Part shown: positions 200 through 63,534 of the stretch, piece after piece | Numbering within the stretch: position 1 is the first letter of the stretch | Layout: each line of letters starts with the position of its first letter | Assembly: GCA_013204605.1 (NCBI GenBank) | Contig: JABMNI010000013.1 | Span: 1 to 64,000 of the forward strand | Source of the DNA: Ignavibacteria bacterium | GTDB lineage: Bacteria; Bacteroidota; Ignavibacteria; Kapaibacteriales; Kapaibacteriaceae | Direction: 5' to 3' | DNA length: 64,000 nt | Program-made: the position numbers and the translations under genes | The notes under the pieces: model-generated | What the model saw: only the letters and a program-made list of their open reading frames with translations | Told to the model about the DNA's origin: nothing | The model's database searches: none

Positions 200-856
200 C
201 TAATTGCTTCGCGCATATAGGTGCACGCAGATGTAGGCAAGCGCCAAGGGAGTGAGCAACCCCAACATGCTTACAACGGAAATAAACCTGGGCATCAGCT
301 GAGGTTTAAGGGGCTTCACTGTAGCAAACGCACTTCGAATTCCGTGATGCAAATGATAGGCGAGCATGGTCATGCAAAACACATAGAAGCCGGTATAGTA
401 CACAGAAGAAAAAGCGAGATGAGCTGCTTCGTATAAATTGTAATCTTGGTTTGTATACACTCTGTTTGGAATGAAAAAATTCCAAAGATGAACGATCAAA
501 AACAACAAAATAACGGCGCCAGTCACTCCCACAAATCTGCTAGAAATACTTTTAGGGGGCTTCATGTTTACCACCCGCTTTTTCAATTTCAGGTAGTTCA
601 ACCGCATGTAAAGTCCTACGGTAATGTGTAGAGCAAACGTGCCCAGTAACGCAATTTCAAGTACGCGCACAATCAAGGAATTGCCCATCACTTCGGTGTA
701 CCAAAGGTAGGGGGCTTGATTGGAATTCAACAGCAGGATGTTGCCACATAGGTGTTCTAATAGAAATAATAAAAGCAGGCTGCCGCTGTATGCCTCTAAC
801 TTTTTTCTACCGGATACGGTACCAAAATTCCTTTTTATCAAACCACCCAAACGCAT
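200..856 (-). CDS. sdhC: Succinate dehydrogenase/fumarate reductase cytochrome b subunit
   Basis: 218 aa, five hydrophobic helices; RNFGTVSGRKKLEAYSGSLLLLFLLEHLCGNILL matches the b558-type SdhC pattern. Confidence 0.85.
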   Translation of the reverse strand: MRLGGLIKRNFGTVSGRKKLEAYSGSLLLLFLLEHLCGNILLLNSNQAPYLWYTEVMGNSLIVRVLEIALLGTFALHITVGLYMRLNYLKLKKRVVNMKPPKSISSRFVGVTGAVILLFLIVHLWNFFIPNRVYTNQDYNLYEAAHLAFSSVYYTGFYVFCMTMLAYHLHHGIRSAFATVKPLKPQLMPRFISVVSMLGLLTPLALAYICVHLYARSN

Positions 857-947
857 CTAAATAGTTCCCTAGATTATGAAAACTGCAGCTCGGAACTCGC
901 ATTCGAAAAAATAGAATTCTGCTTCCACAATTGCTAATTGTTACTTG

Positions 948-2378
948 TTAATTATCAATTGATTCTTGTATTGGATTGAACGTTGTCACCTTCATTCTTC
1001 GAATGATATACGTGGAGAAAACGGATGTGAATAATAGCGGCAGCAACAGACCATAGTTACCGGAGATTTCGAACAATAGTATTCCACCTGTTAACGGTGC
1101 AGAAAAGGCGCCGGCAATTACGGCGGCAGCGCCAACAATTGCATAGAGTCCAACGGAGGTTTCTGGAACAAAGAACATCAACACCGTGCCGAAACAAAAT
1201 CCGAAAAGTGCACCAACCTTCAGGGCGGGTGCAAAAGTTCCACCTTCGCCTCCTGAAGCGATTGTAATGGCATTCGTGATAGGCTTAACGAGAACCGTGG
1301 CAAGTGCAATCCACCACAGACCCTGTCCGGCGATTGCTTGGTTGATAGGGTTGTATGAAGTTTCAAGGAGTTGTGGTAGAAAGATTAGCGGTATGCTAGC
1401 AAGTAAACCACCCAATGCCGGACGCAAAACAAACGGAAGTTTCATTACCAGTTTGGTAGTTTTTTCTGCCGAGTACCTATAACTGCGCAAATAATATGCA
1501 GCAACAAAGGCACTTAAAACTCCGGCTAATGCCAGTAGTGGGTAGTCCAACAATGTAATAGGCGTAGCCAATGGCGCCATCAATAACGGCTTGTTTCCCA
1601 AAATTGCACGAACCGTACTAGTAGCTAAAACTGATGCAATCACAATTGGAATGAATGTTCGAGCACGTAGTTCACCGGTAATAGCTTCAACTGCAAATAG
1701 AATTCCACCGAGTGGGGCGTTAAAGATTCCGGAGATTGCAGCCGCTGCGCCGGCTGCGCCAAGTACGCGGATGTGTCGTTTAGACATTGCGCCTATGCGT
1801 CCCAGGCCCGACGAAACCGAGGCCCCCAAGATTACCGTAGGCGACTCACGTCCGGCCCCACCACCAGTACCAATGCTAATAGTGGAAAGTAAAATTGCGT
1901 GAAAAGAAAGCTTCCACGAGATAGGCTGCGTTGACTCCATTTTTAACTGATCAGAAACCGAAGCAAGTCCACGATGCGTGACATCTTTAAAAACATACTT
2001 CTTTAACACACCAACCAGTAAGCCCCCTAACATTCCAATAACCGGGATTAACCACTCTGTCCAAGTAATTGAATGAAACACGCCCGGCGCTAAAAATTGC
2101 AATCCTGTTTCGAAAAGTTCAAGCACCGCATGGTAGGCTACAATTACCAGACCCACAACAATGCCGGCAAGGGCCGAACTCAGTAGAAGGGCGTCGTCGG
2201 TTAATCTGTACAGGCTTGCTTGATTGATCAGTTTGCCCAAGGTTCTGCGCAACCTACTAACCACAAAATTGCTACGGCGAATAATTTTGCGTGTTGATTG
2301 GCGCCATCCGGGCCGGTGATGCATGTTAGGATCGAACAGAGTGTTTCTTTCTAATCCTACAAAACTACCATTAAGCAA
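948..2378 (-). CDS. ClC-family chloride channel/antiporter
   Basis: GTGGGAGRESPTV and GGEGGTFAPALKVGALFG selectivity-filter-like motifs; listed TTG start lies in a heptad repeat, so the true start may be downstream. Confidence 0.93.
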   Translation of the reverse strand: MLNGSFVGLERNTLFDPNMHHRPGWRQSTRKIIRRSNFVVSRLRRTLGKLINQASLYRLTDDALLLSSALAGIVVGLVIVAYHAVLELFETGLQFLAPGVFHSITWTEWLIPVIGMLGGLLVGVLKKYVFKDVTHRGLASVSDQLKMESTQPISWKLSFHAILLSTISIGTGGGAGRESPTVILGASVSSGLGRIGAMSKRHIRVLGAAGAAAAISGIFNAPLGGILFAVEAITGELRARTFIPIVIASVLATSTVRAILGNKPLLMAPLATPITLLDYPLLALAGVLSAFVAAYYLRSYRYSAEKTTKLVMKLPFVLRPALGGLLASIPLIFLPQLLETSYNPINQAIAGQGLWWIALATVLVKPITNAITIASGGEGGTFAPALKVGALFGFCFGTVLMFFVPETSVGLYAIVGAAAVIAGAFSAPLTGGILLFEISGNYGLLLPLLFTSVFSTYIIRRMKVTTFNPIQESIDN

Positions 2379-2446: not shown

Positions 2447-3266
2447 TTATTGCGCCATAACTAGTCGTGTTCGATTGGTTGATACGTTTCGAATGATTAC
2501 AGGCGAAGGTGAAACAACACCGGGCGGCAGATGGCCATCCGCAGTAGTGATGGTTGAAAGAATCTTGCGTCCAAGAAGGTCAATCACCTCCACGTTTGCA
2601 TTGCGCCACGTATCTGGATTCACGGTTGGGTCTGGGTTTGTAGTGGGGTCTTCCAGCACGTTGGTGGCAAACGTTGGACGGAAGCTGAACACTGCACCGG
2701 CCGACGGCATACCGGTCAACGGTGGGAACGCAACGGTTCGAGTTGAATCTATGCTAGGTGCATCGGGGTTTCCATACAACCAAATCTTCTGGTACATGTT
2801 ATAAAAATCGGGAGATTGTAACGAGATTCCCACGAAAGGACGCGCGAGCACTTTACTGATGTTGTGTGACCGAATCGTACCGAAGTCTCAGCACGCCACC
2901 ATCCATTGTTGATTCATACTTGTACTGGATATTCGCCCCCGGCGTTGCCGAATCCAACTCCCCAAACAACCCATCTGCCAACACCAACAACTGCGGCGTA
3001 AAAATTTGAAATGTTCCGTTCCCCTGCAACAGCACTTCCACCGAATCATCCACAGGAAAATCAATCCCGAACATGTTGAACGGCTTATTCGGACGCGGCA
3101 CCCGCACCGGCGTTCCCTGCGTCCAATCAACCTGCACCCGCGCACCACCCAGCGGCACCCATTGCACATTCGAAAAACTCTTCGTCATTTGGTAAGGGGC
3201 TTCCCCGGCGTGCGTAATAGTCAGGCCTAGAACGAGCGTTACAAAAACAGATGGGATGAATCTCAC
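2447..3266 (-). pseudogene. Probable frameshifted secreted protein (ORFs 2853-3266 and 2447-2851), T9SS-like C-terminus
   Basis: First ORF has a signal peptide; second, off by one frame, has no SD and ends with IDLLGRKIL...NRTRLVMAQ, a sorting-domain-like tail. Confidence 0.5.
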
Positions 3267-3423: not shown

Positions 3424-3459
3424 GAGTTCGTAATTCGTAATTCGCAATTCGTAATTGAC

Positions 3460-5176: not shown

Positions 5177-5354
5177 GTATTAACTACGTCTCGAAATTTT
5201 GTAAGGAGTGCAAAATTACCACACTTCGCAATGGGAATAGCCGTTCAAGCAACACCGCCCACGTTGAAGCCCCTTATCCAATAGAACTATACAAGAAAGC
5301 AATTCATGAATCTGCTACGGGTGGACCGTTGTGTGGTTTGCAAAAGGGTGTTGC

Positions 5355-6746
5355 TCAGAATCCAACTATGTCGCCAATTCCACTTCGAACTGAAAACCAT
5401 ACAATTTCCATGAACTCATCGTTCGGCTTGTGAACGTAGTTCACCAGCCCTGGTTCTATTTTACCATCGCTGTCCCGAGTGTTGGACCCGTTGAAAACAA
5501 ACAGGTTAGAAAGAAACATTTTTATCGAATTCATTAAGCCTGAATCTTTGTTGGTTTTCTCGTCGAGCGACGTAATGTAGAGATCAGTGTAAACTGCCTT
5601 AACTCTCCCCGTTGAACGACCTTTAGAAACACTAATGTTCATGGTTGCATGCTGTAGCTGTCCGGTGCTTATCCTGATGTGTTCCGCTACTTCGAGAAAT
5701 GTATTAAATTTTGAAAGGGGCATGGCAGATAATGAACCGCTAATGTGCATGGCTAAACCAACCGAGGCGGTTGGGATAGTAATGCGAGTTTTTAAAAGAC
5801 CTGACTTTTGTATTCGACCTAGGGCATGAATTACCATGGCTGTGGCGGGGGTGGGAACGTTGGTTACCCCAACGATATTCATGTTGATTTCATCTATAAA
5901 CACTGCGGCAGATCGAGCCCCTTTAAATGCACGTTCGGCGTAATCAAATTGAGCATTGCTAAAATCAATGCTATCAATTTGTAGCCTACCGGGAACCAGA
6001 GCAAATATTTGATTTGGCATTCGTGGCTTTGCCGCATGCTTATCGTAATCTTTGTCTTTGTTCATATAGACGTCGATGTGTAGACTGTCAACCAGCATGG
6101 ATCGAGCCACATACTGTTTACCATCCAGTGCACCAATAAAATCAACGCCTGCTGATTTGAATTGGCTTGCACTAATTATAAAGCGGGTACTTCGAGTTTT
6201 TTTTAATTCAAAAAAGCCTTCATCGTCGGTAGTCGGCATGACACTTACTACATGAATTTCGCATGACGAGTCGGGGATTGAAACACGAAGCCCCTTACAC
6301 AAGAATTTATAGCGGCCACTGGTTAGCAAAATGTTTTGTGCCGTGGCTGCGGTGTTGCCAAGACTGCTGGTGTGAACATCACCTGACCAAATAATCTGTA
6401 GCCAATCTATTTCACTGATAGAAATTTGTGCTACTTCTAATGCAAACAATGTGTCTTTGGGAGTGAGTTTTACCGAGTCGATTTCGAGTACGTTGTCTAA
6501 AATGGAAATTCGCACCGCTGCTATTTGAACTTCGTGCTGGGGGTAGGCTTTTTGAAGGGCGAGCTCTATCTTACTTTTCAAGTACCCGTTTACAAAGATG
6601 TTGGGAAACAAGACGAGCACTGAAATGCACAACGCAATAACTAAAAGTGCTGAAGCACACACGTAAAGCAATTTTCCAAAAGGAAGTATTCCGATGTTTT
6701 GCTGGAATATTTTGAGCGTCAGGTAGATCCACGATGTTAAATTCAC
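5355..6746 (-). CDS. Hypothetical protein, single N-terminal TM, AsmA-like architecture
   Basis: 463 aa ORF with N-terminal hydrophobic helix and long periplasmic-type region. Confidence 0.5.
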   Translation of the reverse strand: MNLTSWIYLTLKIFQQNIGILPFGKLLYVCASALLVIALCISVLVLFPNIFVNGYLKSKIELALQKAYPQHEVQIAAVRISILDNVLEIDSVKLTPKDTLFALEVAQISISEIDWLQIIWSGDVHTSSLGNTAATAQNILLTSGRYKFLCKGLRVSIPDSSCEIHVVSVMPTTDDEGFFELKKTRSTRFIISASQFKSAGVDFIGALDGKQYVARSMLVDSLHIDVYMNKDKDYDKHAAKPRMPNQIFALVPGRLQIDSIDFSNAQFDYAERAFKGARSAAVFIDEINMNIVGVTNVPTPATAMVIHALGRIQKSGLLKTRITIPTASVGLAMHISGSLSAMPLSKFNTFLEVAEHIRISTGQLQHATMNISVSKGRSTGRVKAVYTDLYITSLDEKTNKDSGLMNSIKMFLSNLFVFNGSNTRDSDGKIEPGLVNYVHKPNDEFMEIVWFSVRSGIGDIVGF

Positions 6747-6755
6747 TAGGCTAGA

Positions 6756-7640
6756 TTACTGATTCACCAAGCTCATACAATAGTCTTTGTACGAAGAATT
6801 TGGCAAAGCTGTCACGGTTTGAATGTACTGTTCCGTGTTTAAGAATTGCATGTGTAGGGCAACCTCTTCGAGGCAACCAATTTTTAGACCCTGACGTTTT
6901 TCGATGGCATGGATAAACGTGCCCGCATCGTGAAGACTCTCGGGCGTTCCCGTATCAAGCCACGCAATCCCGCGTCCTAACGGAATTACGTCTAGCAAGC
7001 CCCTTTCCATATACATCTTGTGCACGTCTGTAATTTCCAGTTCACCGCGCGGACTTGGAGTTAGCGATGCCGCTATTTCGCAAACAGAATTGTTGTACAC
7101 GTACAAGCCCGGGATGGCCATATTTGAAAGGGGCTTTGTGGGTTTCTCTTGAATGGAGATAACGTTTCCGTTGGCATCTATTTCTACAACACCGTAGCGT
7201 GACGGATCCTGCACCTGGTAACCAAAAACCGTGGCGCCACGATTATTGTTTAGTGCCGCGCGCAGAAAGTCGAGCTTGCCATAAAATAGATTGTCGCCCA
7301 GTATGAGGCAAACATCACTCTCGGCAATGAAATTCTTAGCAATGAGAAAAGCATCTGCAATTCCACGGGGTTCATTTTGGATGGCGTACGAAAGTGAAAT
7401 TCCTAGTTGACTACCGTCGCCCAGCAACCGCTCAAACACTGGAGTGTCTTGCGGTGTAGAGATAATCATGATATCCTTGATGCCCGCCATCATCAGCGTG
7501 CTCAATGGGTAAAATATCATCGGCTTATCGTACACAGGTTGGAGCTGTTTAGAAAACGCGGCGGTGAGAGGGTAGAGGCGTGAACCACTTCCTCCGGCAA
7601 GTACAATTCCCTTGGCTGTTGATGAAGGAAGATGGCGCAC
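6756..7640 (-). CDS. rfbA: Glucose-1-phosphate thymidylyltransferase
   Basis: GIVLAGGSGSRLYPLTAAFSKQLQPVYDKPMIFYPLSTLMMAGI; GTG start overlaps phoU stop (TAGTG). Confidence 0.96.
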   Translation of the reverse strand: MRHLPSSTAKGIVLAGGSGSRLYPLTAAFSKQLQPVYDKPMIFYPLSTLMMAGIKDIMIISTPQDTPVFERLLGDGSQLGISLSYAIQNEPRGIADAFLIAKNFIAESDVCLILGDNLFYGKLDFLRAALNNNRGATVFGYQVQDPSRYGVVEIDANGNVISIQEKPTKPLSNMAIPGLYVYNNSVCEIAASLTPSPRGELEITDVHKMYMERGLLDVIPLGRGIAWLDTGTPESLHDAGTFIHAIEKRQGLKIGCLEEVALHMQFLNTEQYIQTVTALPNSSYKDYCMSLVNQ

Positions 7641-9133: not shown

Positions 9134-9154
9134 AGGTAGGGGGCTATCTGTTTC

Positions 9155-10063
9155 TTAGTTGCGACGCAATCTGGATCTGACAAAAATCGCTGAAAAGTTT
9201 AACGTAAACGTCAGTGCTAACAACACCAACGTTGTGGCATACTGCAAGGGCAGCGTCTTATCTACATCAGGTGACTGTGTTGCAAGTACATACAAGTGAT
9301 AGCCGAGGTGCATAAACTTATCTGTTATCGAGCCGGGTAACTGCTCGGCAGAATATGTGACCCCAACAAAAAGAATTGTGGCTACTTCTCCAGCGCCGCG
9401 TCCGACGGCAAGAATGGAACCCGTAAGTATTCCACTAACCGCATTCGGCAACACCACCCTAACAATGGTCTGCCAGCGTGTGGCACCCAATGCTAGCGAT
9501 GCTTCTCGAAGTTCCCGAGGTACGGCGCGCAATGCCTCCTCGACACTTACAATTACTACGGGAAGCGTTAGCACAGCCAATGTGGCCGATGCCCAGAGTA
9601 AAGAGCCATCACCAAATGAAGACGATCCTGTGGCGTTGTCAAGCCCCTTTCCCAAAAATTGGACAAAGAAGCCAACACCAAACAATCCAAACACTATGCT
9701 GGGTACGCCGGCCAGTGTGTTAACGGCAAAGCGAACACTGCGAGCAAAAACTGAATCTTGTTTTGCGAACTCAGACAGATAAATGGCGGTGGCTGTTCCA
9801 ATGGGTACACCCATGATGGTCATTATCATCACCAAGAAAGTTGTGCCAATTAAAGCGGGAAAAATTCCACCTTCGGTATTGCTATTGCGTGGGAATTCTG
9901 TAAGAAAGGCGCCAGTAATATTGGGTCCACCTTCAATAATAAAATCGCCAATCATCCCCACTATGATTCCCAGAATTGCAACAGTGGCAATCAGGGCCAC
10001 CATTACAGCGAAAAAACCGAGTACTTTTTTAGAGTAGGGTATGTGTCCGGTAAAGGTCTGCAT
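9155..10063 (-). CDS. pstA: Phosphate ABC transporter permease PstA
   Basis: Permease motif EALRAVPRELREASLALGATRWQTI, position in pst operon. Confidence 0.95.
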   Translation of the reverse strand: MQTFTGHIPYSKKVLGFFAVMVALIATVAILGIIVGMIGDFIIEGGPNITGAFLTEFPRNSNTEGGIFPALIGTTFLVMIMTIMGVPIGTATAIYLSEFAKQDSVFARSVRFAVNTLAGVPSIVFGLFGVGFFVQFLGKGLDNATGSSSFGDGSLLWASATLAVLTLPVVIVSVEEALRAVPRELREASLALGATRWQTIVRVVLPNAVSGILTGSILAVGRGAGEVATILFVGVTYSAEQLPGSITDKFMHLGYHLYVLATQSPDVDKTLPLQYATTLVLLALTFTLNFSAIFVRSRLRRN

Positions 10064-11277
10064 TACCTACCCTGGAAGCGTTTGATGAGTCGTTTTTTCA
10101 CATACAATTCTGTGACGGCGTTTAACGAAAAACTGACAACGAAAAGTATGGTTCCTAACAAAAACAGCACGCCATAATGCTCCGATCCCCATACAACCTC
10201 GCCCATTTCTGAGCCTATGGTTGCGGCAAAGGTGCGAGCCGGCGCAAAGGCCGACCAACTATTTAGGGCAGCATTTCCGGTGGCCATAATGGCAATCATG
10301 GTTTCGCCAAAGGCTCGGCCTATGCCAAGCAACACGGCGGCAAAAACACCCGGCGCTGCGGCCGGCAACATCACGCGGTACGCAGTTTGCCATTTGGTGG
10401 AGCCTAACGCTAGCGATGCCTCCCAAAGCGTTCTTGGAACGGCACTCAATGAGTCTTCGGCAATAGCGTACACAATAGGTATTACGGCAAGCGCCAATCC
10501 TATACCGCCAACTAGCGCGTTAAGGCGAAACGTGTTGTCGAAGTTATCTTGAATGAACGAAGCTACCGTAACCAAACAAAAGAAACCCACAACTACCGAC
10601 GGAAATCCAGCCAGTAATTCAATGGCCGGTTTAACGATGTTCCGTACCCTTGCCGGGGCAAAAAACGCAGTAAATATTGCGGCAAGAATTCCAAGTGGCG
10701 CACCAAGTAAAATGGCGATGACTGTTGTTTTGGCTGTACCAATCAACAACGGAATCATCCCAAACTTTGGCTGAACGCCCACGGGCTGCCAAACGTTACT
10801 GGTCAGATTCTCCCACAATGAAAGCGGCTGCTCTGTTACAGAAAATGTCCCCATTGGTGTAGGGTCGTTAATGTCCGCAGGCAACGAACCAGTTTCCGGA
10901 TTATAAATCTCCGGATAGTTCATGTTAAGCGGCGTAAGAATATTTGTGCCGGGAAGGGGCTCAACCTCGACAGCGGGATTGTATTGTTCGGCCGCTCCGT
11001 CGGATTCACCATAGGTCTCGGGCGCATCGCCGTATGTTTCGGCGGAGTATTGTTCGGGTGCTGCAGCCTGGGCATCGGCAGAACGTGGTGCAGGCGTTTC
11101 CGTTTTTGAATTGGCGGTGCCGACGTTCATTGTAGTGAACAATGAAGCCGCCTCGCGGAATACAAAGAAGAAGATCAGAAAGATTATAACGATGGAGAGT
11201 GAAGCAACAATTCTGATGCTCCACTCTGCCAAAAATTCACCGATAAACTTTCGTTCTTTTCGAAACGGATTCGTCAC
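10063..11277 (-). CDS. pstC: Phosphate ABC transporter permease PstC with long periplasmic insertion
   Basis: EDSLSAVPRTLWEASLALGSTKWQTAYRVMLPAAAPG; low-complexity insert after TM1. Confidence 0.94.
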   Translation of the reverse strand: MTNPFRKERKFIGEFLAEWSIRIVASLSIVIIFLIFFFVFREAASLFTTMNVGTANSKTETPAPRSADAQAAAPEQYSAETYGDAPETYGESDGAAEQYNPAVEVEPLPGTNILTPLNMNYPEIYNPETGSLPADINDPTPMGTFSVTEQPLSLWENLTSNVWQPVGVQPKFGMIPLLIGTAKTTVIAILLGAPLGILAAIFTAFFAPARVRNIVKPAIELLAGFPSVVVGFFCLVTVASFIQDNFDNTFRLNALVGGIGLALAVIPIVYAIAEDSLSAVPRTLWEASLALGSTKWQTAYRVMLPAAAPGVFAAVLLGIGRAFGETMIAIMATGNAALNSWSAFAPARTFAATIGSEMGEVVWGSEHYGVLFLLGTILFVVSFSLNAVTELYVKKRLIKRFQGR

Positions 11278-24206: not shown

Positions 24207-24283
24207 GATTTCCGAAAAATAGCACGTTTTTTGCTAGACACAACACATCGGGGCAGATTTTTTGTGTTTTTCTTGTAAGGGGG

Positions 24284-25991: not shown

Positions 25992-26065
25992 GATTTTGGC
26001 TTGTAAAATTATTAACGTTTGTGAAATGTGGAAGTAACGACGTGGGAAAGCCCCTTACATAACAA

Positions 26066-35233: not shown

Positions 35234-35260
35234 CTCGTGCAGGTGGTGTTGTGTAGGGGG

Positions 35261-50140: not shown

Positions 50141-53100
50141 AGACTCAACTGCTCCCCAGCCGAGGCTGACTTCTTGGTTCTGGATAAATATGAGTACACA
50201 CTTGGAATTACGAATAGCGTTAGGGTGAGCGAAAACAGTAAGCCCCCTACAATTACAATACCCATGCCCATTCGGCTTTTGGCACCGGCGCCTATTGCCA
50301 GTGCAATTGGTAGTGCGCCGAGGGCGGTTGCGAGGGTTGTCATGAGAATTGGACGCAATCGCGCTGCCGCGGCCTGTTTGATAGCCTCGTGTACGGGCAT
50401 CCCACTTTCTTTGAGTTGGTTTGCAAATTCCACAATCAAGATTCCATTTTTTGTAACGAGACCTATTAGCATGATGATGCCGATCTCGCTAAAAATATTT
50501 AGGGTCTGATTGAAATACCAAAGCGATGTTAGTGCGCCCGCTAATGCAAGGGGCACAGTGAGCATGATGATAAATGGATCGACAAAACTTTCAAATTGGG
50601 CGGCGAGAATGAGGTAGATGAGTAGCAGTGCAAAAAGAAAGGCGAACAAAATATTCGACGAACTTTCTGAGTAGTCGCGTGATGGACCGGTTAGAGCAGT
50701 CGAGAAGGAATCGTCCAAAACGTTGTCGGCAATCTTTTGCATTTCATCTATACCATCGCCAATGGTTTTGCCGGGAGCCAGCGCAGCTGTAACAGTGGCG
50801 GATTTGTAACGGTTGTAGTGGTAGAGTTGCGACGACTTGCTTTGCTCTTCGAGTTGCACTACGCTTGATAGCTGAATCATTTCGCCGCGAGTGCTTCGGA
50901 CGTACATTGAAAGTATGTCGGTTGGTTCGTCGCGATTCTCGCGCGTGAACTGACCTATCACTTGGTATTGTTTTCCGTTCATTGTGAAGTAGCTAAACCG
51001 CTGACCACTCAATGCCAGTTGCAAGGTTTGTGCAATGTCGAAGGTAGACACGCCTAGCAACTTCGCCTTGTCTCTGTCGATAGTTAAATTCAATTCCGGT
51101 TTGTTGAATTTCAAATTGCAATCAACAATGAGAAACGTTTCGTTTTTGTTTGCTTCATCCAAGAACTTCGGAATTACTTGGATAAGCCGTTCATAGTTTG
51201 GCGCTTGCAAAACAAATTGCACGGGGAGTCCAACGCCAGCGCCACCACCGCTAGAAGAAATAGTTTGTTCTTGAATGACAAAAGTCTTTGCCTCTGGGAA
51301 TTGCTTTGTGACCTTGGTTATGTAATCTGCTATGTCTTGCTGACTCCGTGCACGTAACGAAGAATTAACCAATCCAAAACGTCCAAACCCTGTGTTAACA
51401 GCCCCAGAGCCCGCAAATCCAGGTGCAGTAACTGTCAAAACAATTGCCTTCTCCGGCACCGAGTCAGAAATAAACGTCGCCAATTTGTCCATGTAGGCGT
51501 CGGTGTAATCGTAAGATGAACCCTCAGGCGCAGCAACAATCAGACGTAACCAGTTGCGATCTTCAAGCGGTGCAAGCTCGGAAGGTAGGACTTTAAACAA
51601 CACAACAATCAATGCCACCGAACCCAACACGATTACTATCGACCACCAACGAACGCTCAAGAAATTTCCTAGCCACTCTGAATATCGATTGGTCATTCCC
51701 ACAAAGTATTTTTCAGTACGCAAGTAAAATCTACTTTTATGGTGTGGATTCTTCCTCACCATATAAGCGTTCAACATCGGTGTTAATGACAGGGAAACAA
51801 AGGCGGAAATAAGCACGGCTCCGGCTATCACTATTCCGAATTCTCGGAAAAGTCGACCCACAAAGCCCTCTAAAAAAATTACAGGCAGGAAGACCACAGC
51901 AAGTGTAAACGATGTAGACATCACGGCGAAAAATATTTCGTTCGACCCCTTTATAGCAGCCTCAACGGGTTTCATCCCGCCTTCGATTTTCTTGTAGATA
52001 TTTTCTGTAACTACAATTCCATCATCAACCACTAAGCCCGTTGCCAAAACTATAGCCAGCAATGTGAGCACATTAACGGAGTAGCCCATGAAATACATGA
52101 TGAAGAATGCGCCGATGAGCGAAACGGGGATATCGATTAGCGGACGAAATGCAACCAACCAGTCGCGGAAGAAGAGGTAAATTATTAGTACCACCAAGAT
52201 GATGGCAATCACTAGAGTTTCCTGAACTTCGAGCACCGACATCTTGATGAATATTGTGTTGTCTAACGCGATGTTAAGTTGGTAATCTTTTGGTAGGTCG
52301 CGCCGGATGTCTTCTACACGTTTATAAAACTCATCGGCAATTTCTAAATAGTTCGCTCCGGGTTGTGGCACTAGTCCAAGACCTATCATTGGGACGCCTG
52401 AAATTTTCAGAATGGTTTCTTCGTTCTCCGGACCCAACTCCGCGAAACCAATATCCTTTAATCGCACTACGTTGTCGCCGTCGATCTTGATAATCAGATT
52501 GTTAAAACTTGCCGCATCTGAAAATCGCCCCTTCGTGTTCACTGTTAACTCGGTGGTATTGCCCGCAATTTTTCCTGCGGGAAGTTCCACGTTTTCCAAA
52601 TCGAGTGCTTGCTTCACATTGATCGGCGTCAAACCAAAAGCCGAGAGTTTCGCCGGGTTTATCCAAATGCGCATTGCATATTTTTTCTGACCCCAAATTT
52701 GCACCGAACTAACGCTTGGAATTGTCTGCAGTCGTTCGGCAATTACGTTCTCCGCATAGTCACTCACCTCAAGCTGCGTCTTCGTATCCGACTGCAGCGT
52801 CAGCGCCAAAATCGAATTCGAATTCGCGTCCGACTTCGTCACCGTTGGCAGCCCATCGATATCCTGCGGGAGTTGGCGCACCGCCTGCGACACCTTATCT
52901 CGCACATCATTCGCCGCCGCCTCGAGGTTCGCATCAAGATTAAACTCTACCGTAATCTGACTATTGCCCAGATTACTCGACGAAGAAATCGACCGAATTC
53001 CCTCAATACCATTTAATGCTTTTTCAAGGGGCTCTGTGATTTGTGATTCCACCACTTCGGGATTGGCGCCCACATAACTTGTGCGTACCGTAATAATCGG

Positions 53101-53346: not shown

Positions 53347-54408
53347 TCATCGTATTACTCGCACTGGCGAATCATTTATCAGTTGCACAAAGCCCGTTGT
53401 AATAACAGAGTCACCCGGCGAGATGCCCGAAATAATTTGTATTGATTCGTCAGTTCGGATTCCAGTTTCAACTTCTGCCTCTCGTGCTTTGCCGCCCTTG
53501 TATAGGAATACTTTTTTACCCTTCAAAATTGGGATGATGGCCTGTGTAGGTATCATGATTGCATCGGAAATATCTCTTAACGGCAGCACTACTTTTACAA
53601 ATGCCCCCGGATACAACATGCCATGGTTAACTGCTAAGGCGCGCAATTGAATTGTTCTGGTAGTGGGATCGATCTTCGGTTCAATGGCGTACACTCGAGC
53701 GTGGAACACCGTTGAGTTATCCGACAACGTAAAATCGATCACCGAGTTTTTCCGCATAACATTGAAGTAGCGCTCGGGCACGGAGAAATCTATCTTCACT
53801 TTATCTAGTTGTTGCACCGTGGCGATTCTTGTAGTGTTGGTAACAAAGCTTCCTGTGCTAATGTATTTGAGTCCTACTACGCCATCGAACGGGGCACGAA
53901 TCTCCGTCTTCGCAATCTGACTCCTCACAAACTCAATGTCTGTATCAACAGTGCGCGCCAGGTTTACCATCACATCGTATTCTTCTTGACTTGCACCGCT
54001 CACCGCCAACAACTGCTTCAGCCTGTCAATTTTTTCCTTGGTTATCGCCGCTTGTAATTCCAGCTTTTTCAACTGTGCTTGAAAATCCGAATCATTGATC
54101 TTCACCAGCAGCTGTCCCCGCTTAACCGCACCACCTTCGTTGATGTTCAGCTTTACCACCTTACCCGAAATCTCCGGCATCAACACCACTTCCTCATTGG
54201 CGATTATGCTCCCCGTGGTGTACACATCATTCGTCATTTCCTGCGATGCAGCCACAAAAACATTCACCGCCGTGGGCATCATCGCGCCAGGTTTGCCAGG
54301 CCCTTTAGCCCCCTTACCAGCACTGCCCGACGTAATGAAAAAGAATTTGATCGCCGCGAACAGCACTACTACCGCAGCAATAGCTGCCAGAATTTTTAAC
54401 GACTTCAT
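53347..54408 (-). CDS. Efflux RND transporter periplasmic adaptor subunit
   Basis: GSIIANEEVVLMPEISGKVVKLNINEGGAVKRGQLLVKIND lipoyl-type domain. Confidence 0.95.
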   Translation of the reverse strand: MKSLKILAAIAAVVVLFAAIKFFFITSGSAGKGAKGPGKPGAMMPTAVNVFVAASQEMTNDVYTTGSIIANEEVVLMPEISGKVVKLNINEGGAVKRGQLLVKINDSDFQAQLKKLELQAAITKEKIDRLKQLLAVSGASQEEYDVMVNLARTVDTDIEFVRSQIAKTEIRAPFDGVVGLKYISTGSFVTNTTRIATVQQLDKVKIDFSVPERYFNVMRKNSVIDFTLSDNSTVFHARVYAIEPKIDPTTRTIQLRALAVNHGMLYPGAFVKVVLPLRDISDAIMIPTQAIIPILKGKKVFLYKGGKAREAEVETGIRTDESIQIISGISPGDSVITTGFVQLINDSPVRVIR

Positions 54409-54557: not shown

Positions 54558-55874
54558 TCAGTCTTTCTTCCGCATCGTGGCCACAAACAGCCCGTCCGTT
54601 CCATGCGTGTACGGATCGGCTTGGTACCAGTAGGCGTTGGGGTCAAGGTTTGGAAGGTGGACGCCATGCTTTTCAAAAATCGGAAGAAGCGGAAGGGGTT
54701 CGAAGTTTGGATTCTGTTTTAAGAAACGCTCGGCCACTTTTTGGTTTTCCTCGGCAAAAATTGCGCAGGTGGAATACACCAGCACTCCGCCGTTGCCAAC
54801 AAACTTGCTGTATTGGTTTAGCATGGCTAGTTGTTTTTTGCCGTGGCGTAGTAGTTGATCTTCCGTTAGACGCCACTTCACCATTGGTAGACGGCGCACG
54901 GTGCCTGTCCCGCTGCAGGGGGCGTCTACCAGAACTACGTCGAAGCCCTCGGTAGGTAGTCCGCGCGGTTCCTGCAAAACGGGCCGGTTGCCCTGGGTGT
55001 ATTTGTATTGCCAAAGATGCGTTCGAATGCTTTCCACTCCCGCACGGCGGGCACGAGTTGCAATTTCCTTCACACGCGATGCTTCTATGTCGGCGGCAAT
55101 AATGCGTCCTTTGTCGTTCTGTAGGTCCGCCAAGTGCAGCGTCTTACCACCCGCACCTGCACATGCATCCAACACAATGTAATGCGGCTCAACGCCGCAG
55201 GCGTATCCAATAAGTTGACTTCCTTCATCTTGAATTTCAATCGCACCGCGTAGGTACATTGCATCATCTGTCAGGCGAAATCTTTTTAGCAACGTAATAG
55301 CCGACGGACTATACTTTCCAATTTCAAACGGCAATTCTAAAACCGTGAGTGCTTTTGCAATCTGCGGCACGGTAGCATTCCGGAGGTTCACTCGAATTCC
55401 AACGGGAGCAGAATCAATCATCGACCGAAAAACATTCTGCGTGTAGGCCGCATCCCAATTTGGGTTGCATGCATCTAGAATCCATTGTTGCGTACAACAC
55501 CACTCAGCCAACGTGCAGTGCTTTTGCGCATCCTCCCACGTTAACAAATTTTTCTCGCACCACTCTTTTGCCGCCTGTAATTCAGGGGCCAATTCATCTT
55601 TAATCACTAACGTATGTTTTACACCGCCGGCTAGTGCGTAACACATAGCCCCTTGCACAACATCAACCAAGTTGCAATTACGCATTACAACTTCGCCCAA
55701 CGAGTGGATGCGGAGCGTGATAAATACGAGCTCGCTAATTACTCTGCGGTCGGTGCTGCCAACATATTTTTTCGAGCGTAAAAATTCCGACACTAACACG
55801 TCGGCCGCACGCGGCGAATTCCAAACAATTTGAATAATCTCTGAGGCGTGGCCAACTAACGATTCAAGTCTCAT
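54558..55874 (-). CDS. RsmB/NOP family SAM-dependent RNA methyltransferase
   Basis: VLDACAGAGGKTLHLA, VDAPCSGTGTVRRLPMVKW, VYSTCAIFAEEN. Confidence 0.92.
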   Translation of the reverse strand: MRLESLVGHASEIIQIVWNSPRAADVLVSEFLRSKKYVGSTDRRVISELVFITLRIHSLGEVVMRNCNLVDVVQGAMCYALAGGVKHTLVIKDELAPELQAAKEWCEKNLLTWEDAQKHCTLAEWCCTQQWILDACNPNWDAAYTQNVFRSMIDSAPVGIRVNLRNATVPQIAKALTVLELPFEIGKYSPSAITLLKRFRLTDDAMYLRGAIEIQDEGSQLIGYACGVEPHYIVLDACAGAGGKTLHLADLQNDKGRIIAADIEASRVKEIATRARRAGVESIRTHLWQYKYTQGNRPVLQEPRGLPTEGFDVVLVDAPCSGTGTVRRLPMVKWRLTEDQLLRHGKKQLAMLNQYSKFVGNGGVLVYSTCAIFAEENQKVAERFLKQNPNFEPLPLLPIFEKHGVHLPNLDPNAYWYQADPYTHGTDGLFVATMRKKD

Positions 55875-56851
55875 AATGCTATGACAATCTTTCCCATCTG
55901 TTGCGATGATACCATTCTTTCGAAGGCGGATAGTGATTCTTCAAATGGAAAAACGGTGTCGACAATTGGCACTATTTCGCGCTCATGCACAAAGTCGAGC
56001 ATCTCAGCGAAGTCGTTCTCGGTACCCATCGTACTGCCTAAAAGTGAAATCTGTTTCCAAAAAATTCTCTGCATGTGTACGTCAGGTGCAGCCCCCTTTG
56101 ATGAACCGTAAAACACAATACGTCCACCGGGATTTATTACCGAGCACAAGTCGTTCACAGTGTCGCCGCCAATGCTGTCGATTATTAACGATACACCACC
56201 GCGTTCAGCAATTTTCTTTTTCCAATCTTCATTGTTGATGTTCACGCCGTAGGACGCGCCTAGCATTTTTGCCTGCGCAAGTTTTGCATCGCTGCGGCTA
56301 CTAACTATTACTGTCGACCCAAGCGATAATGCTATTTGCATGGCACCCGCTGCCACTCCGCCTCCGATGCCGGTAATCAGGACCGTATCGTTCACACCAA
56401 TTCCACCGCGCACAACCAAGGCACGCCAAGCTGTTACTGCGGCAAGGGGCAAGGCAGCAGCCTGCACATTAGTTAGGTGGGCGGGAGCTTCGAACACATT
56501 TTGCACGGGCACACAAATGTACTCGGCCAGCGTGCCCTGATGCGGCATTCCTAAAACGCTAAAATGTTTGTCTTGCGCCAGCGGGTTGTCGCCCCAATGC
56601 AATGTTGGGTTCAACACCACGCGCTGTCCTTGCAAATCCGGCTGCAACTCACACGAAACAACTTCACCACACGCGTCAGAACCCAACACGCACGGCAGTT
56701 TTATGCCCGCATATTTACCACTGCGGATATACTCATCGCGATGGTTAAGCGCAGCATGACTAACTCGAACTAGTGCTTCTTGTTGTGTTGGGATAGGTAT
56801 CGGCAGGTCGGCAAATTCCAGACCCCGCTCGGTGCATTGTAAGGCTCGCAT
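55871..56851 (-). CDS. Zinc-binding alcohol dehydrogenase/quinone oxidoreductase family protein
   Basis: ALVRVSHAALNHRDEYIRSGKYAGIKLPCVLGSDACGEV; GIGGGVAAGAMQIA. Confidence 0.9.
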   Translation of the reverse strand: MRALQCTERGLEFADLPIPIPTQQEALVRVSHAALNHRDEYIRSGKYAGIKLPCVLGSDACGEVVSCELQPDLQGQRVVLNPTLHWGDNPLAQDKHFSVLGMPHQGTLAEYICVPVQNVFEAPAHLTNVQAAALPLAAVTAWRALVVRGGIGVNDTVLITGIGGGVAAGAMQIALSLGSTVIVSSRSDAKLAQAKMLGASYGVNINNEDWKKKIAERGGVSLIIDSIGGDTVNDLCSVINPGGRIVFYGSSKGAAPDVHMQRIFWKQISLLGSTMGTENDFAEMLDFVHEREIVPIVDTVFPFEESLSAFERMVSSQQMGKIVIAL

Positions 56852-56921: not shown

Positions 56922-58451
56922 TCACTGCACAGCAAAAATTCGCACGAGCGATTTGTCTGGGCTAGACAGGCGCAGCACGTACGCACCGGGCGGCAAGGAT
57001 TCAGTAGCCATTTGGTAACTACGTTGCTCGCTCTTGGTGCTTATCAGCAGTTTGCCGTTCAATGAATACACATCAACCGAAAAGGGAGCGTCCTCGAATT
57101 CCACCGTCAACACGCCCACGCTCGGATTTGGATAAAAATTCAGGTAGGGGGCTTTGTGCTCCTCCACAGAGGTGGTGGGCTTGCCTTCCATTGCGCCAAT
57201 AGATGGTGGATTTGCAAAGGGCTTGCCGGTGAAGTCGAGTATGTTTGAAGGGAGTGCCGCGCCAGCCGCAATTGCCCCGCTAGATGGAAGAAGCGAAAAG
57301 TCTTTTGTTGCTGTGTCGGCGAAGAGGGGATTCATGCCCACTAGCGAATTTACTTGAGTTACGCCTCCTACGTTCCATCCGGATGCAGTAGGATTTGTGT
57401 GACGGTAGAATAAATTGTTCGTGATCAAGAAAGTTTCAGGACTAGTGTTTGATCCAACGTTTACCATGACAGAAACGCCGCTATTAAACCAAACAATATT
57501 ATTCCGAAAAATATTATTCCCGCACTTTTCAAAACGAGTTTCATCAACAGTTTCTTGCAGAATTCTAAAGCCCCATTTTTCAGGATTGATAAATGTGTTG
57601 TTCGAAACATCGGCGCGAACAACTCCTACATATCCAATGGGCGTTACTCCGCCAATAACAATATTTGCGGTCACGGAAATGTCGGCGGCTTCGAACGTAG
57701 CATTCGCTGGACGGAAAAATTGCAGACCCGTAGAGCCCCCTACATTAAATGCGCGCTGTCCACCATTCGCCACAAAATTCCGCTCGATACTTATATGGTG
57801 CGTTCCGCCCTTTGCCTGAATGCAATTGGAACCAAGATTTGTAAACGTGTTTTTGCGAATAATTCCGTAGTGACATCCAACCATGTCAATGCCACTCCCA
57901 CCCTCGGCACCATTTTTGAACGAGCAATCCTCGATGAGAAAACTATCGAGTCCGGAGAGTTTCAAAAAGTCATTGTTCCCCGTTGCATTCATGTCTTCGA
58001 ACGAAACGTTGCGCACAACAATGTTTGTAGTTGGTTGCGTAATCGTGCCGCCGTCGTCGATATTAAACCCATTCCCGGTCTGCCGGCGAACGGTAAAGTT
58101 TTCAAAAGTTAAATGGTGACAACTTGAAAGATGAATTGCTTCGGAAGCTCCTAAAAAAACCACCGAGCTACGGTCAACACCACGAACTGTAATGGGATTA
58201 CCTTTTACGCCTTGAACATCAATAAGGAAAAACGCACCCAAATAATTTCCTGGATGAATCAACACTGTGTCGCCAGGAGTGGCAGCGGAAAAAGCAGCCG
58301 ACAGATTGGTGTAGGTCTGCCCGGGACCAACGTTCAACGTGGTTGCCAACAGGTCGCGCGGACACAAGGCGAGTATTACTGCAGTAGTAACTGCGACGAA
58401 AAACACGTTCAAATTAATTTTCACATCAATGTTACATTGATTTTTCAACAT
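56922..58451 (-). CDS. Right-handed parallel beta-helix protein with T9SS-type sorting domain
   Basis: LNVGPGQTYTNLSAAFSAATPGDTVLIHPG; C-terminal YPNPSVGVLTVEFEDAPFSVDVYSLNGKLL. Confidence 0.87.
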   Translation of the reverse strand: MLKNQCNIDVKINLNVFFVAVTTAVILALCPRDLLATTLNVGPGQTYTNLSAAFSAATPGDTVLIHPGNYLGAFFLIDVQGVKGNPITVRGVDRSSVVFLGASEAIHLSSCHHLTFENFTVRRQTGNGFNIDDGGTITQPTTNIVVRNVSFEDMNATGNNDFLKLSGLDSFLIEDCSFKNGAEGGSGIDMVGCHYGIIRKNTFTNLGSNCIQAKGGTHHISIERNFVANGGQRAFNVGGSTGLQFFRPANATFEAADISVTANIVIGGVTPIGYVGVVRADVSNNTFINPEKWGFRILQETVDETRFEKCGNNIFRNNIVWFNSGVSVMVNVGSNTSPETFLITNNLFYRHTNPTASGWNVGGVTQVNSLVGMNPLFADTATKDFSLLPSSGAIAAGAALPSNILDFTGKPFANPPSIGAMEGKPTTSVEEHKAPYLNFYPNPSVGVLTVEFEDAPFSVDVYSLNGKLLISTKSEQRSYQMATESLPPGAYVLRLSSPDKSLVRIFAVQ

Positions 58452-60972: not shown

Positions 60973-61143
60973 ACCAATGCTTTCCCGCTTCATTCCTGAT
61001 CTCCAATTCTGAAATAGTGTAAGGGGCTCAGTGGAATTTTCTAGTGAATGTGGACGGTTATTTTGTTGACAAAGTAGTGCTAAGATAGTCGGCCTCCAAA
61101 GGTTTGCACGTAATTTTGCACTCCCACAAAGCCCCTTTCAATT

Positions 61144-63534
61144 ATGATTTCAATTTTGCTGCTGAGTTTTTTTGCGATGGGCGAATCGCACGTGCATGGT
61201 GTTGTGCGCGATAGTGCCAGCCGCGAGCCGCTGGTGGGGGCGGTGGTGCAGGTGGTGGGGACGAAGATTGGTTCGGTGACGGATCACCACGGCGCGTTTC
61301 ACTTGCATGATGTAACAACCGATACCACCCTGATTGATGTGCGATACGTGGGGTACGCCATTAAACGTGCTACGTTGTTTGCACCGTATACAAATTCAGT
61401 TGAGGTTCTTTTGGGTATGGGCGAGAGTAATAATGCACGTGTGTTGAAAGGGCGAAATCCGGACGGACCAGACCTTCAGACGCAACCGGTAATTGTTACT
61501 GCCGATGTTTTGTCGAGCGCGGGGATGCACACGCAATCGCAAACGGTGTTGACTGAAACCGAGCTGCGTGAAAATTCGGGTCAGAATTTTTCGGCGGCAC
61601 TTACGGAGATCCCAGGCGTTACAACCATTCAGACCGGACCCACCGTTCAAAAGCCGATTATTCGCGGTCAGTCCGGCAATCGAATTGTGATCAACAACAA
61701 CGGCATCAATCAAGAGGGTCAGCAGTGGGGCACAGAGCACGCACCGGAAATTGACCCGTTTACGCCTATGCGCATTCAAGTGGTGAAGGGGGCTGCGGGG
61801 GTTGTGTATGGTCCGAACGCCTTGGGCGGTATCATCCGCTCTGAACCTTCACCGCTCGACGTGTACGAGAAATTATCGGGCGAGGCATCGGTGAATTTGT
61901 TTACCAATAATCAGCAAGGTGCCGTTGGCGGCTATGTGCAAACTGGTGGTGTGCTGGGAAAGCCCCTTGCCATTCGCGTGTATGCAAATGCGCGCAGAGC
62001 GGGGAGTTCGAGTGCGCCGGAGTATTCGTTGCAGAATACGGCGTTTGGGAGTTGGAGCGGTGGACTCTACACGACGTTTGGGAATAATGATCTGGGCGGC
62101 TGGGCAACATTGAGTGAGTTTCAAACTACGCTGGGAATTTTTTCGGGCTCGCACATTGGAAATCCGGCCGATATGCAACGCGCAATTGAACGCGGAAATC
62201 CGGTAACGAATCCGGAGTTTTCGTACGATATTTCTAATCCGAAACAAGAGGTGCAGCACACTATGTTCTCCGGACAATTTCATAACTACATCAAGAATTT
62301 TGGAACGCTGAGCGTAACGTATGGTTGGCAGCGAAATAATCGCAGCGAATATGATGCCCACAACTTGCGGATTATTGGGCGTGGCGACAATCCGGATGAA
62401 CGCGCCGCCGATAGCATTGCGCGGCTGAACAATGCGTTGCAAACGCCGGCCATGAATTTGGTACTGGTTACGTATTCGCTCGAGGCAAAACTGGAGCACC
62501 GGCTGAATGATGTAACGTCGGGATCGATTGGCGTAAATGCCTTGCGCCAGAGTAACAGTCGCGGCGGAAGTGTAGCTCTCATTCCCGATTATTTGCTGTA
62601 TGGGGTAGGGGGCTATGTGTTAGAAAACTCCATGATTAGAAATGTGCAATTATCTGCCGGACTCAGGTACGATGTTCGATGGCTCGATGCAAGGTTGGAT
62701 GTTCTGGGGAGCACTCAACAGACCATAAAAAATAATTTGTACACGTCGTTTTCGGGAGCGTTGGGTGCGCAAACGCAACTCACAGACAACCTCAGATTAT
62801 CGGCCAACGTTGGCTCAGCGTGGCGTCCACCGCAAGTAAACGAACTCTACAGCAACGGTCTGCACCACGGCGTAGCCACCTACGAAATTGGCAACGCGGA
62901 ACTTCAAGCAGAACGCAACATCAATGCAGATGTGACGCTGCACATCAATACGAGTGATGTGCAGTGCGAAGTAAGCGGATACGCAACCAAATATTTCGGC
63001 TACATTTACACTAAGCCCCTTCCCAATAATCCCACCACCACCGTGCGCGGAACGTTTCCTACCTACGTTTACACAAGTAACAATGCGTGGATAAACGGAG
63101 TAGATTTCAGTGCCACCGCCGAGTTGACAACGGTGATTTCGGTGTCGGCAAAAGGCTCAGTAGTGCGCGGCACAACCACCGAAGGAATTCCATTGCCCCT
63201 CATTCCTGCTGATCGGCTACGGCTGAGCGTGCACGCGCATGCGCATGACGTGTGGCTCGCGCACGATGCCTACGTGGAAGTCGGTGTGAGCGGAGTGCGG
63301 CGTCAGGACCAGTACCTCGACAGTTCCGACTACGCGCCGCCGCCACCTGGCTACATTTTGACTGATCTCAAATTCGGCGCAACAATCGATGTCTTCGACA
63401 AACCGGTCTTCGTGGGTCTGTCGTGTTCCAACCTCTTCAACCATCGTTACCGCGACTACCTAAATCGATTTCGATATTTTGCTGATGATGCGGGGCGGAA
63501 TTTTACTATAAGATTTTCGGTGCCCTTTCACTAA
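61144..63534 (+). CDS. TonB-dependent receptor with CarboxypepD_reg-like N-terminus
   Basis: VHGVVRDSASREPLVGAVVQVVGTKIGSVTDHHGAFHL; plug and barrel, C-terminal F-H. Confidence 0.95.
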   Translation: MISILLLSFFAMGESHVHGVVRDSASREPLVGAVVQVVGTKIGSVTDHHGAFHLHDVTTDTTLIDVRYVGYAIKRATLFAPYTNSVEVLLGMGESNNARVLKGRNPDGPDLQTQPVIVTADVLSSAGMHTQSQTVLTETELRENSGQNFSAALTEIPGVTTIQTGPTVQKPIIRGQSGNRIVINNNGINQEGQQWGTEHAPEIDPFTPMRIQVVKGAAGVVYGPNALGGIIRSEPSPLDVYEKLSGEASVNLFTNNQQGAVGGYVQTGGVLGKPLAIRVYANARRAGSSSAPEYSLQNTAFGSWSGGLYTTFGNNDLGGWATLSEFQTTLGIFSGSHIGNPADMQRAIERGNPVTNPEFSYDISNPKQEVQHTMFSGQFHNYIKNFGTLSVTYGWQRNNRSEYDAHNLRIIGRGDNPDERAADSIARLNNALQTPAMNLVLVTYSLEAKLEHRLNDVTSGSIGVNALRQSNSRGGSVALIPDYLLYGVGGYVLENSMIRNVQLSAGLRYDVRWLDARLDVLGSTQQTIKNNLYTSFSGALGAQTQLTDNLRLSANVGSAWRPPQVNELYSNGLHHGVATYEIGNAELQAERNINADVTLHINTSDVQCEVSGYATKYFGYIYTKPLPNNPTTTVRGTFPTYVYTSNNAWINGVDFSATAELTTVISVSAKGSVVRGTTTEGIPLPLIPADRLRLSVHAHAHDVWLAHDAYVEVGVSGVRRQDQYLDSSDYAPPPPGYILTDLKFGATIDVFDKPVFVGLSCSNLFNHRYRDYLNRFRYFADDAGRNFTIRFSVPFH

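What the first reader, a model, noticed from the sequence alone, without database searches (positions are those of the whole stretch)
308..63021. Over-represented dispersed octamer ARGGGGCT, candidate DNA-uptake-like or HIP1-like genome signature
By eye I found about 53 exact copies of AAGGGGCT or AGGGGGCT on either strand. Plus-orientation starts: 308, 554, 709, 3194, 7128, 9138, 10954, 14393, 15996, 19557, 24278, 25459, 27462, 28443, 30896, 34389, 35255, 38349, 46778, 49395, 50108, 53026, 57146, 61021, 61787, 62607. Minus-orientation starts: 2021, 5268, 5916, 6289, 7008, 9642, 12320, 17093, 19493, 23341, 24123, 24633, 26049, 27183, 34541, 35825, 37508, 39606, 41739, 50241, 54307, 55647, 56090, 57734, 61130, 61961, 63014. 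A composition-only model gives about 3-4. Density is about 1 per 1.2 kb, with near-equal orientation (26 vs 27), unlike Chi or KOPS. Most copies are inside unrelated conserved genes. Established knowledge: Neisseriaceae DUS and Pasteurellaceae USS have this density and dispersal, and HIP1 in cyanobacteria is similar but palindromic. I know of no such element in this phylum. The function is inference.
Basis: partly seen in the sequence, partly recalled or inferred. Interest (0 to 1): 0.92.

Follow-up and report, generated by a model that had tools for sequence, protein, structure and literature searches.

The report
Uptake-like DNA tag in Kapaibacterium family
One bacterial family (Kapaibacterium relatives, phylum Bacteroidota) carries a short DNA word about every 1.4 kilobases all over its genome, with genus-specific "dialects", as if to mark DNA as its own for import; such tags were known only from two proteobacterial families whose import machine these bacteria appear to lack.

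Summary
ARGGGGCT occurs 53 times in the window (52 of 53 coordinates right; 7008 should be 6998) against 2.45 expected, and 1,871 times in the 2.69-Mb genome against 82 for the reversed word. Codon-preserving shuffles leave about 15 of 266 coding copies. The octamer is the core of a footprint of about 28 bp (T-rich, KGW-ARGGGGCT-TWSYGG, weaker to +18), present in all codon phases and outside genes. It shows no replication-strand bias, is maintained at orthologous positions within one group of relatives, turns over between genera, and is scarce in low-GC islands. Of 297 genomes across the phylum only this family is clearly enriched, with genus dialects: ARGGGGCT, ARGGGGCT/R, ARGGGGCR, ARGGGGCC, none. 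This matches uptake sequences (DUS/USS) better than Chi, KOPS or HIP1. ComEC (beside recA), DprA and a ComEA-like protein are present; no type IV pilus ATPase, secretin or pilin was found in the genomes tested. A conserved operon (outer-membrane barrel, DUF4397, DUF5689-nuclease) resembles the pair essential for pilus-independent transformation in Riemerella anatipestifer. Best reading: a new, independently evolved uptake-sequence family in Bacteroidota. Uptake itself is inferred, not shown.

The parts
308..315 (+). ARGGGGCT element
   Evidence: exact match
554..561 (+). ARGGGGCT element
   Evidence: exact match
709..716 (+). ARGGGGCT element
   Evidence: exact match
2021..2028 (-). ARGGGGCT element
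   Evidence: exact match
3194..3201 (+). ARGGGGCT element
   Evidence: exact match
5268..5275 (-). ARGGGGCT element (intergenic or gene edge)
   Evidence: exact match; context
5916..5923 (-). ARGGGGCT element
   Evidence: exact match
6289..6296 (-). ARGGGGCT element
   Evidence: exact match
6998..7005 (-).
   Evidence: exact match
7128..7135 (+). ARGGGGCT element
   Evidence: exact match
9138..9145 (+). ARGGGGCT element (intergenic or gene edge)
   Evidence: exact match; context
9642..9649 (-). ARGGGGCT element
   Evidence: exact match
10954..10961 (+). ARGGGGCT element
   Evidence: exact match
12320..12327 (-). ARGGGGCT element
   Evidence: exact match
14393..14400 (+). ARGGGGCT element
   Evidence: exact match
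15996..16003 (+). ARGGGGCT element
   Evidence: exact match
17093..17100 (-). ARGGGGCT element
   Evidence: exact match
19493..19500 (-). ARGGGGCT element
   Evidence: exact match
19557..19564 (+). ARGGGGCT element
   Evidence: exact match
23341..23348 (-). ARGGGGCT element
   Evidence: exact match
24123..24130 (-). ARGGGGCT element
   Evidence: exact match
24278..24285 (+). ARGGGGCT element (intergenic or gene edge)
   Evidence: exact match; context
24633..24640 (-). ARGGGGCT element
   Evidence: exact match
25459..25466 (+). ARGGGGCT element
   Evidence: exact match
26049..26056 (-). ARGGGGCT element (intergenic or gene edge)
   Evidence: exact match; context
27183..27190 (-). ARGGGGCT element
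   Evidence: exact match
27462..27469 (+). ARGGGGCT element
   Evidence: exact match
28443..28450 (+). ARGGGGCT element
   Evidence: exact match
30896..30903 (+). ARGGGGCT element
   Evidence: exact match
34389..34396 (+). ARGGGGCT element
   Evidence: exact match
34541..34548 (-). ARGGGGCT element
   Evidence: exact match
35255..35262 (+). ARGGGGCT element (intergenic or gene edge)
   Evidence: exact match; context
35825..35832 (-). ARGGGGCT element
   Evidence: exact match
37508..37515 (-). ARGGGGCT element
   Evidence: exact match
38349..38356 (+). ARGGGGCT element
   Evidence: exact match
39606..39613 (-). ARGGGGCT element
   Evidence: exact match
41739..41746 (-). ARGGGGCT element
   Evidence: exact match
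46778..46785 (+). ARGGGGCT element
   Evidence: exact match
49395..49402 (+). ARGGGGCT element
   Evidence: exact match
50108..50115 (+). ARGGGGCT element
   Evidence: exact match
50241..50248 (-). ARGGGGCT element
   Evidence: exact match
53026..53033 (+). ARGGGGCT element
   Evidence: exact match
54307..54314 (-). ARGGGGCT element
   Evidence: exact match
55647..55654 (-). ARGGGGCT element
   Evidence: exact match
56090..56097 (-). ARGGGGCT element
   Evidence: exact match
57146..57153 (+). ARGGGGCT element
   Evidence: exact match
57734..57741 (-). ARGGGGCT element
   Evidence: exact match
61021..61028 (+). ARGGGGCT element (intergenic or gene edge)
   Evidence: exact match; context
61130..61137 (-). 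ARGGGGCT element (intergenic or gene edge)
   Evidence: exact match; context
61787..61794 (+). ARGGGGCT element
   Evidence: exact match
61961..61968 (-). ARGGGGCT element
   Evidence: exact match
62607..62614 (+). ARGGGGCT element
   Evidence: exact match
63014..63021 (-). ARGGGGCT element
   Evidence: exact match

Best explanation
ARGGGGCT is the core of a DNA-uptake-sequence-like element of about 28 bp in one family of Kapaibacteriia (phylum Bacteroidota). A surface or periplasmic DNA-binding component of the natural-transformation machinery is proposed to bind it preferentially. Fragments of kin DNA that carry a copy are then imported through an outer-membrane pore, passed as single strand through ComEC, protected by DprA and recombined by RecA. 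Because imported and recombined fragments are biased towards perfect copies, copies accumulate at non-disruptive positions in both orientations (molecular drive). Shown here: the element, its footprint, its dialects, its maintenance, its scarcity in low-GC islands, and the presence of ComEC, DprA and a ComEA-like protein without detectable type IV pilus parts. Inferred: that uptake is the cause, and which protein reads the motif. The best machine candidate is a conserved operon of an outer-membrane barrel (CarboxypepD_reg + OMP_b-brl_4), a DUF4397 protein and a DUF5689-nuclease that usually carries a type IX secretion tail.
For: Genome-wide excess of 23x over the reversed word, equal orientation. 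Codon shuffle: 266 vs 14.6 in G000 and 339 vs 30 in G004. Most single-mismatch neighbours are at baseline, the main exception being last-base variants. Flanks conserved from -9 to +18, e.g. G at -2 in 61% of copies, p=2e-44, in all codon phases and outside genes. Of 297 genomes across the phylum only family f1 is clearly enriched. Genus dialects share ARGGGGC and the G at -2, while the last base and 3' block differ: T in G000, G004 and G013; T and R in g2, g4 and G009; R in G005 (1,131 vs 154); C in G006 (679 vs 54); none in g3. Positional maintenance: 6/9, 6/10, 12/12 sites kept against octamer backgrounds of 9%, 10%, 45%. Foreign-like low-GC windows carry 1 site where 17.6 are expected, P=4e-7; one holds an integrase, a DNA methylase and metal-resistance genes. 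No leading-strand bias, 196 vs 185. ComEC next to recA, DprA and HHH_3 present. Operon parallel to the Riemerella transformation-essential RS04915-RS04920 pair.
Against: No uptake or transformation has been measured; I found no report of competence in this family in the papers searched. ComEC, DprA, HHH_3 and the operon are present also in relatives without the motif, so they do not explain the specificity. Inverted pairs forming terminators, reported for Neisseriaceae DUS, are not enriched. A motif-free 12.7-kb stretch carries housekeeping genes (recR, dnaX), though its GC is atypical. A methylation- or repair-driven origin, as proposed for HIP1, was not excluded by testing for a cognate methyltransferase.
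Confidence: 0.72

Rival explanations
1. HIP1-like signature: the word is created and maintained by DNA methylation coupled to a mismatch-repair bias, with no role in uptake.
For: Similar density and dispersal. HIPs also have alternate versions, and deviations cluster at the end bases (PMC4390886), as at the last base here.
Against: HIPs are palindromic; ARGGGGCT is not. A repair bias at a short word does not predict a conserved flanking footprint from -9 to +18. Cognate methyltransferases were not searched for.
Confidence: 0.13
2. Chi-like recombination hotspot word read by a RecBCD/AddAB-type nuclease.
For: G-rich octamer, frequent across the genome, scarce in foreign-like DNA.
Against: No leading-strand bias: 196 vs 185, p=0.61, in a complete relative. 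Footprint of about 28 bp with degenerate flanks, longer than a Chi octamer. Chi orientation bias is taken from general knowledge.
Confidence: 0.06
3. Binding site of an abundant chromosome-organising or nucleoid protein, selected directly as a structural mark.
For: Even spread around the G004 chromosome, variance below Poisson. Long footprint.
Against: Does not explain depletion in foreign-like islands as naturally, nor rapid dialect change between genera. Known organising sites are far fewer and regionally placed (general knowledge).
Confidence: 0.07
4. By-product of codon, dipeptide or composition bias.
For: Mostly inside genes.
Against: Codon shuffles remove about 94% of coding copies in G000; all frames and both orientations are used; non-coding density is as high or higher.
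Confidence: 0.01

Closest known systems
DNA uptake sequence (DUS) of Neisseriaceae
   Same: Comparable abundance (1,892 DUS copies in N. meningitidis, PMC7811141), both orientations, invariant core with clade-specific dialects and some members without it (PMC3630211).
   Different: Unrelated sequence; other phylum; no type IV pilus parts found, so no ComP pilin; no excess of inverted pairs; function untested.
Uptake signal sequence (USS) of Pasteurellaceae
   Same: Short core with long, weaker and partly T-rich flanks; lineage variants; over 1,400 copies in H. influenzae (PMC7811141).
   Different: Unrelated sequence. The AT tracts of USS are not reproduced: here the T-rich side is 5' and the 3' block is G/C-containing. 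The predicted USS receptor is a type IV minor pilin (PMC12616744); no pilins were found here.
HIP1 (highly iterated palindrome) of cyanobacteria
   Same: Density, dispersal, existence of alternate versions.
   Different: HIPs are palindromic and linked to methyltransferases (PMC4390886); this word is asymmetric with a long footprint.
Self-DNA preference of Riemerella columbina and pilus-independent transformation of R. anatipestifer
   Same: Same phylum; R. columbina transformation is competed best by its own DNA (PMC7965970); outer-membrane CarboxypepD_reg plus DUF5689 operon essential in R. anatipestifer (PMC8459023) and a similar operon here.
   Different: The R. columbina study listed only A/T-rich k-mers as candidates, no distinct uptake sequence. 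The DUF5689 protein here carries a nuclease domain not listed in the Riemerella one; orthology not tested by sequence comparison.

Membership tests
DUS/USS-type uptake sequence (functional class) | Short asymmetric word at about 1 per 1-2 kb, far above expectation, both orientations | tested here: met
   1,871 copies in 2.69 Mb, 960 vs 911
DUS/USS-type uptake sequence (functional class) | Extended weaker flanks around a strict core | tested here: met
   -9 to +18; one-mismatch cores mostly at baseline
DUS/USS-type uptake sequence (functional class) | Dialects among related clades with a shared inner core | tested here: met
   ARGGGGC + T / R / C by genus; fit to phylogeny inconclusive
DUS/USS-type uptake sequence (functional class) | Depleted in recently acquired DNA | tested here: met
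   G004: 1 vs 17.6 expected in 36 kb below 43% GC; foreign origin judged from composition and an integrase
DUS/USS-type uptake sequence (functional class) | Genes for natural transformation present | tested here: met
   ComEC, DprA, HHH_3, RecA; also present in relatives without the motif
DUS/USS-type uptake sequence (functional class) | Increases DNA uptake or transformation | not testable with these tools
   needs an uptake competition assay
Neisserial DUS / Pasteurellacean USS (named families) | Sequence GCCGTCTGAA-like or AAGTGCGGT-like, read by type IV pilus-type proteins | tested here: not met
   different word; no T2SSE over cut-off, no secretin, no N_methyl pilin
HIP1 | Palindromic | tested here: not met
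   ARGGGGCT is asymmetric
HIP1 | Cognate DNA methyltransferase | not tested
Chi / KOPS | Co-orientation with replication | tested here: not met
   196 leading vs 185 lagging, p=0.61, in G004

The most novel reading that the evidence does not exclude
Sequence-specific DNA uptake that evolved outside Proteobacteria on a machine without a type IV pilus: a TonB-receptor-like outer-membrane barrel working with DUF4397 and DUF5689-nuclease partners selects kin DNA by the ARGGGGC element, and the specificity drifts into genus dialects.
Probability: 0.35. Interest if true: 0.95.

Novelty: new variant of a known kind. Interest (0 to 1): 0.83.

Why it matters
Uptake sequences have been described in two proteobacterial families (PMC7811141), both with pilus-type uptake. 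A third, independent origin in Bacteroidota would show that self-marking by biased uptake is a general evolutionary outcome and not a quirk of pilin receptors. It would offer several genera with different dialects for finding the receptor by co-evolution, imply frequent recombination in a group known here mainly from metagenome assemblies, and give a handle on how Bacteroidota move DNA across the outer membrane, which is largely unknown.

Tried and rejected
Codon or dipeptide bias: rejected by synonymous shuffles and by use of all frames. Chi/KOPS: no strand bias in a complete relative. Terminator-forming inverted pairs: not in excess. Copies spread by transposition: flanks show only weak positional preferences, no extended homology. 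Type IV pilus receptor: ATPase, secretin and pilin families not found. Alternative dialect in genus g3: no sharp word, only 2-4x codon-context words such as CCTTGCCG. Gain or loss in g3: a ComEC+DprA tree is too weakly supported (30-49% at key nodes). DUF5689 protein against solved structures: no hit. One genome-contig scan gave only four named relatives. Literature searches found no uptake sequence in Bacteroidota; most subscription papers and preprints are not in that library.
Full report
OBSERVATION. The window holds 53 exact ARGGGGCT words, 26 plus and 27 minus. One coordinate in the finding is off by ten (7008 is 6998). Dinucleotide shuffles give 2.45 on average and never more than 6. In 409 kb sampled from the same genome, AGGGGGCT and AAGGGGCT are the top two of all 8-mers (138 vs 3.2 and 160 vs 5.4 expected). 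The whole 2.69-Mb draft genome has 1,871 copies, against 82 of the same word read backwards.

NOT CODON USAGE. Genes were called with a simple longest-ORF rule, so the counts are approximate. Synonymous codon shuffles leave about 15 of 266 coding copies in this genome (G000) and about 30 of 339 in a relative with a complete chromosome (G004). All three frames and both orientations are used. Density outside genes is as high or higher (0.89 vs 0.71 per kb in G000, 0.88 vs 0.45 in G004). Most one-mismatch neighbours sit at baseline; the main exceptions in G000 are last-base variants (A or G, 2.7x) and one third-position variant (2.1x).

A 28-BP FOOTPRINT. Aligning 298 copies of G000 and 400 of G004 shows conserved positions outside the octamer from about -9 to +18: a C-poor, in G000 T-rich, 5' side; K at -3; G at -2 (61% and 64%); W at -1 in G000; T at +8; a 3' block at +10..+13 that differs between the two genera (SYGG vs GGCW); and a low-A position at +17. 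G at -2 is enriched in every codon phase and in non-coding copies, so a DNA-level reader is implied. Twenty octamers with a wrong first base lack it (7/20).

DISTRIBUTION AND DIALECTS. In 60 relatives and in 297 genomes across the phylum, ARGGGGCT stands far above its control only in family f1; a few distant genomes show mild excesses. Named relatives brought in through GcvT are Candidatus Kapaibacterium, UBA10438 and an Ignavibacteria MAG, all with 0.66-0.92 copies per kb. Within the family the core ARGGGGC is kept and the last base changes: T in G000, G004 and G013; T and R in genera g2 and g4 and in G009; R in G005 (1,131 vs 154); C in G006 (679 vs 54); nothing in g3. G at -2 is shared by the dialects and absent in g3 (6/21), while G005 has G at +10 in 90% of copies. 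A ComEC+DprA tree does not resolve whether g3 lost the element or never had it.

EVOLUTIONARY BEHAVIOUR. Among the four named relatives, sites are kept at orthologous positions far above octamer background (for example 6 of 9 against 9%, 12 of 12 against 45%), while none of the few sites aligned to the window are shared. In G004, 36 kb of low-GC windows carry 1 site where 17.6 are expected (P=4e-7). About half of that region is one island with an integrase, a DNA methylase and metal-resistance genes. In G000 a 12.7-kb, 54%-GC stretch has none, although it carries housekeeping genes. Sites are spread more evenly than Poisson around G004 and show no replication-strand preference (196 vs 185).

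MACHINERY. ComEC is found in 30 of 32 genomes searched and lies beside recA in G000. DprA (18 of 18) and a ComEA-like HHH_3 domain (15 of 15) are universal in those tested. No genome passes the cut-off for the T2SSE ATPase, none has a secretin, and none has an N-methyl pilin. In Riemerella anatipestifer, also Bacteroidota, transformation needs ComEC, DprA, ComF, RecA, an outer-membrane CarboxypepD_reg protein (RS04915), its operon partner with DUF5689 (RS04920), a periplasmic HHH protein and a DUF1343 protein (PMC8459023). DUF5689 is found in 16 of 18 genomes here, once in 15 of them. In most loci examined it ends a three-gene operon: a barrel of about 1,100 aa with CarboxypepD_reg, often a TonB plug, and OMP_b-brl_4; a DUF4397 protein of about 230 aa; and a DUF5689 + endonuclease/exonuclease/phosphatase protein of about 600 aa, usually with a type IX secretion tail. 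Domain content was checked by Pfam in five barrels and three DUF5689 proteins; the other loci were matched by gene size and order. By eye, the nuclease motifs of the G000 protein look intact. This is a resemblance in domains and gene order; orthology with Riemerella was not tested. The operon and the competence genes also occur in relatives without the motif, so specificity, if it resides there, evolved on an older machine.

INTERPRETATION. An asymmetric, sharply bounded core with long weak flanks, dialects around a fixed inner core, maintenance within and turnover between genera, and scarcity in foreign-like DNA are together the pattern of uptake sequences in Neisseriaceae and Pasteurellaceae (PMC3630211, PMC7811141). 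Shown: the pattern. Inferred: biased uptake as its cause, and the barrel operon as the machine. The strongest rival is a HIP1-like methylation or repair process, which also produces alternate words (PMC4390886); the long footprint argues against it, but no methyltransferase was searched for.

LIMITS. The literature library lacks most subscription papers and preprints.

Noticed in passing
window 1-43, 3427-3456, 47949-47981, 48747-48778: Tandem arrays of a 7-bp unit (AATTACG / TTCGTAA); genus g2 genome G016 has a different 7-bp unit (AATAGCG) among its over-represented words.
   Followed up: no
L003 2636-15337 (G000 contig 3): 12.7 kb at 54% GC (genome 46%) without a single element, carrying recR, dnaX and a Cys/Met PLP enzyme: possible replacement by DNA from a higher-GC relative, or an assembly or binning join.
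   Followed up: partly
L084 (G004 557001-577000): 40%-GC island with integrase, C5 DNA methylase, copper/heavy-metal efflux genes; only one element in 20 kb.
   Followed up: partly
L176 6581-12605 and L177-L190: Conserved operon of outer-membrane barrel, DUF4397 protein and DUF5689-nuclease across the order; in G004 the last two appear fused.
   Followed up: partly
L015 8173-10347: RecX domains and an OmpA/PD40 region in one 724-aa reading frame beside recA: fusion or a frame artefact of the draft.
   Followed up: no
G002 samples (L037-L041, L110-L119): Motif-less genus g3 shows 2-4x excess of CCTTGCCG/GGCGGCAA over codon shuffles; looks like codon-context bias but a weak separate word is not excluded.
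   Followed up: no
window 53271-53306 and 56881-56914: Two arrays of the same 14-bp unit (TCCCCGGCCAAAGT / CCCGGCCAAAGTTC) 3.6 kb apart, both next to gene ends.
   Followed up: no
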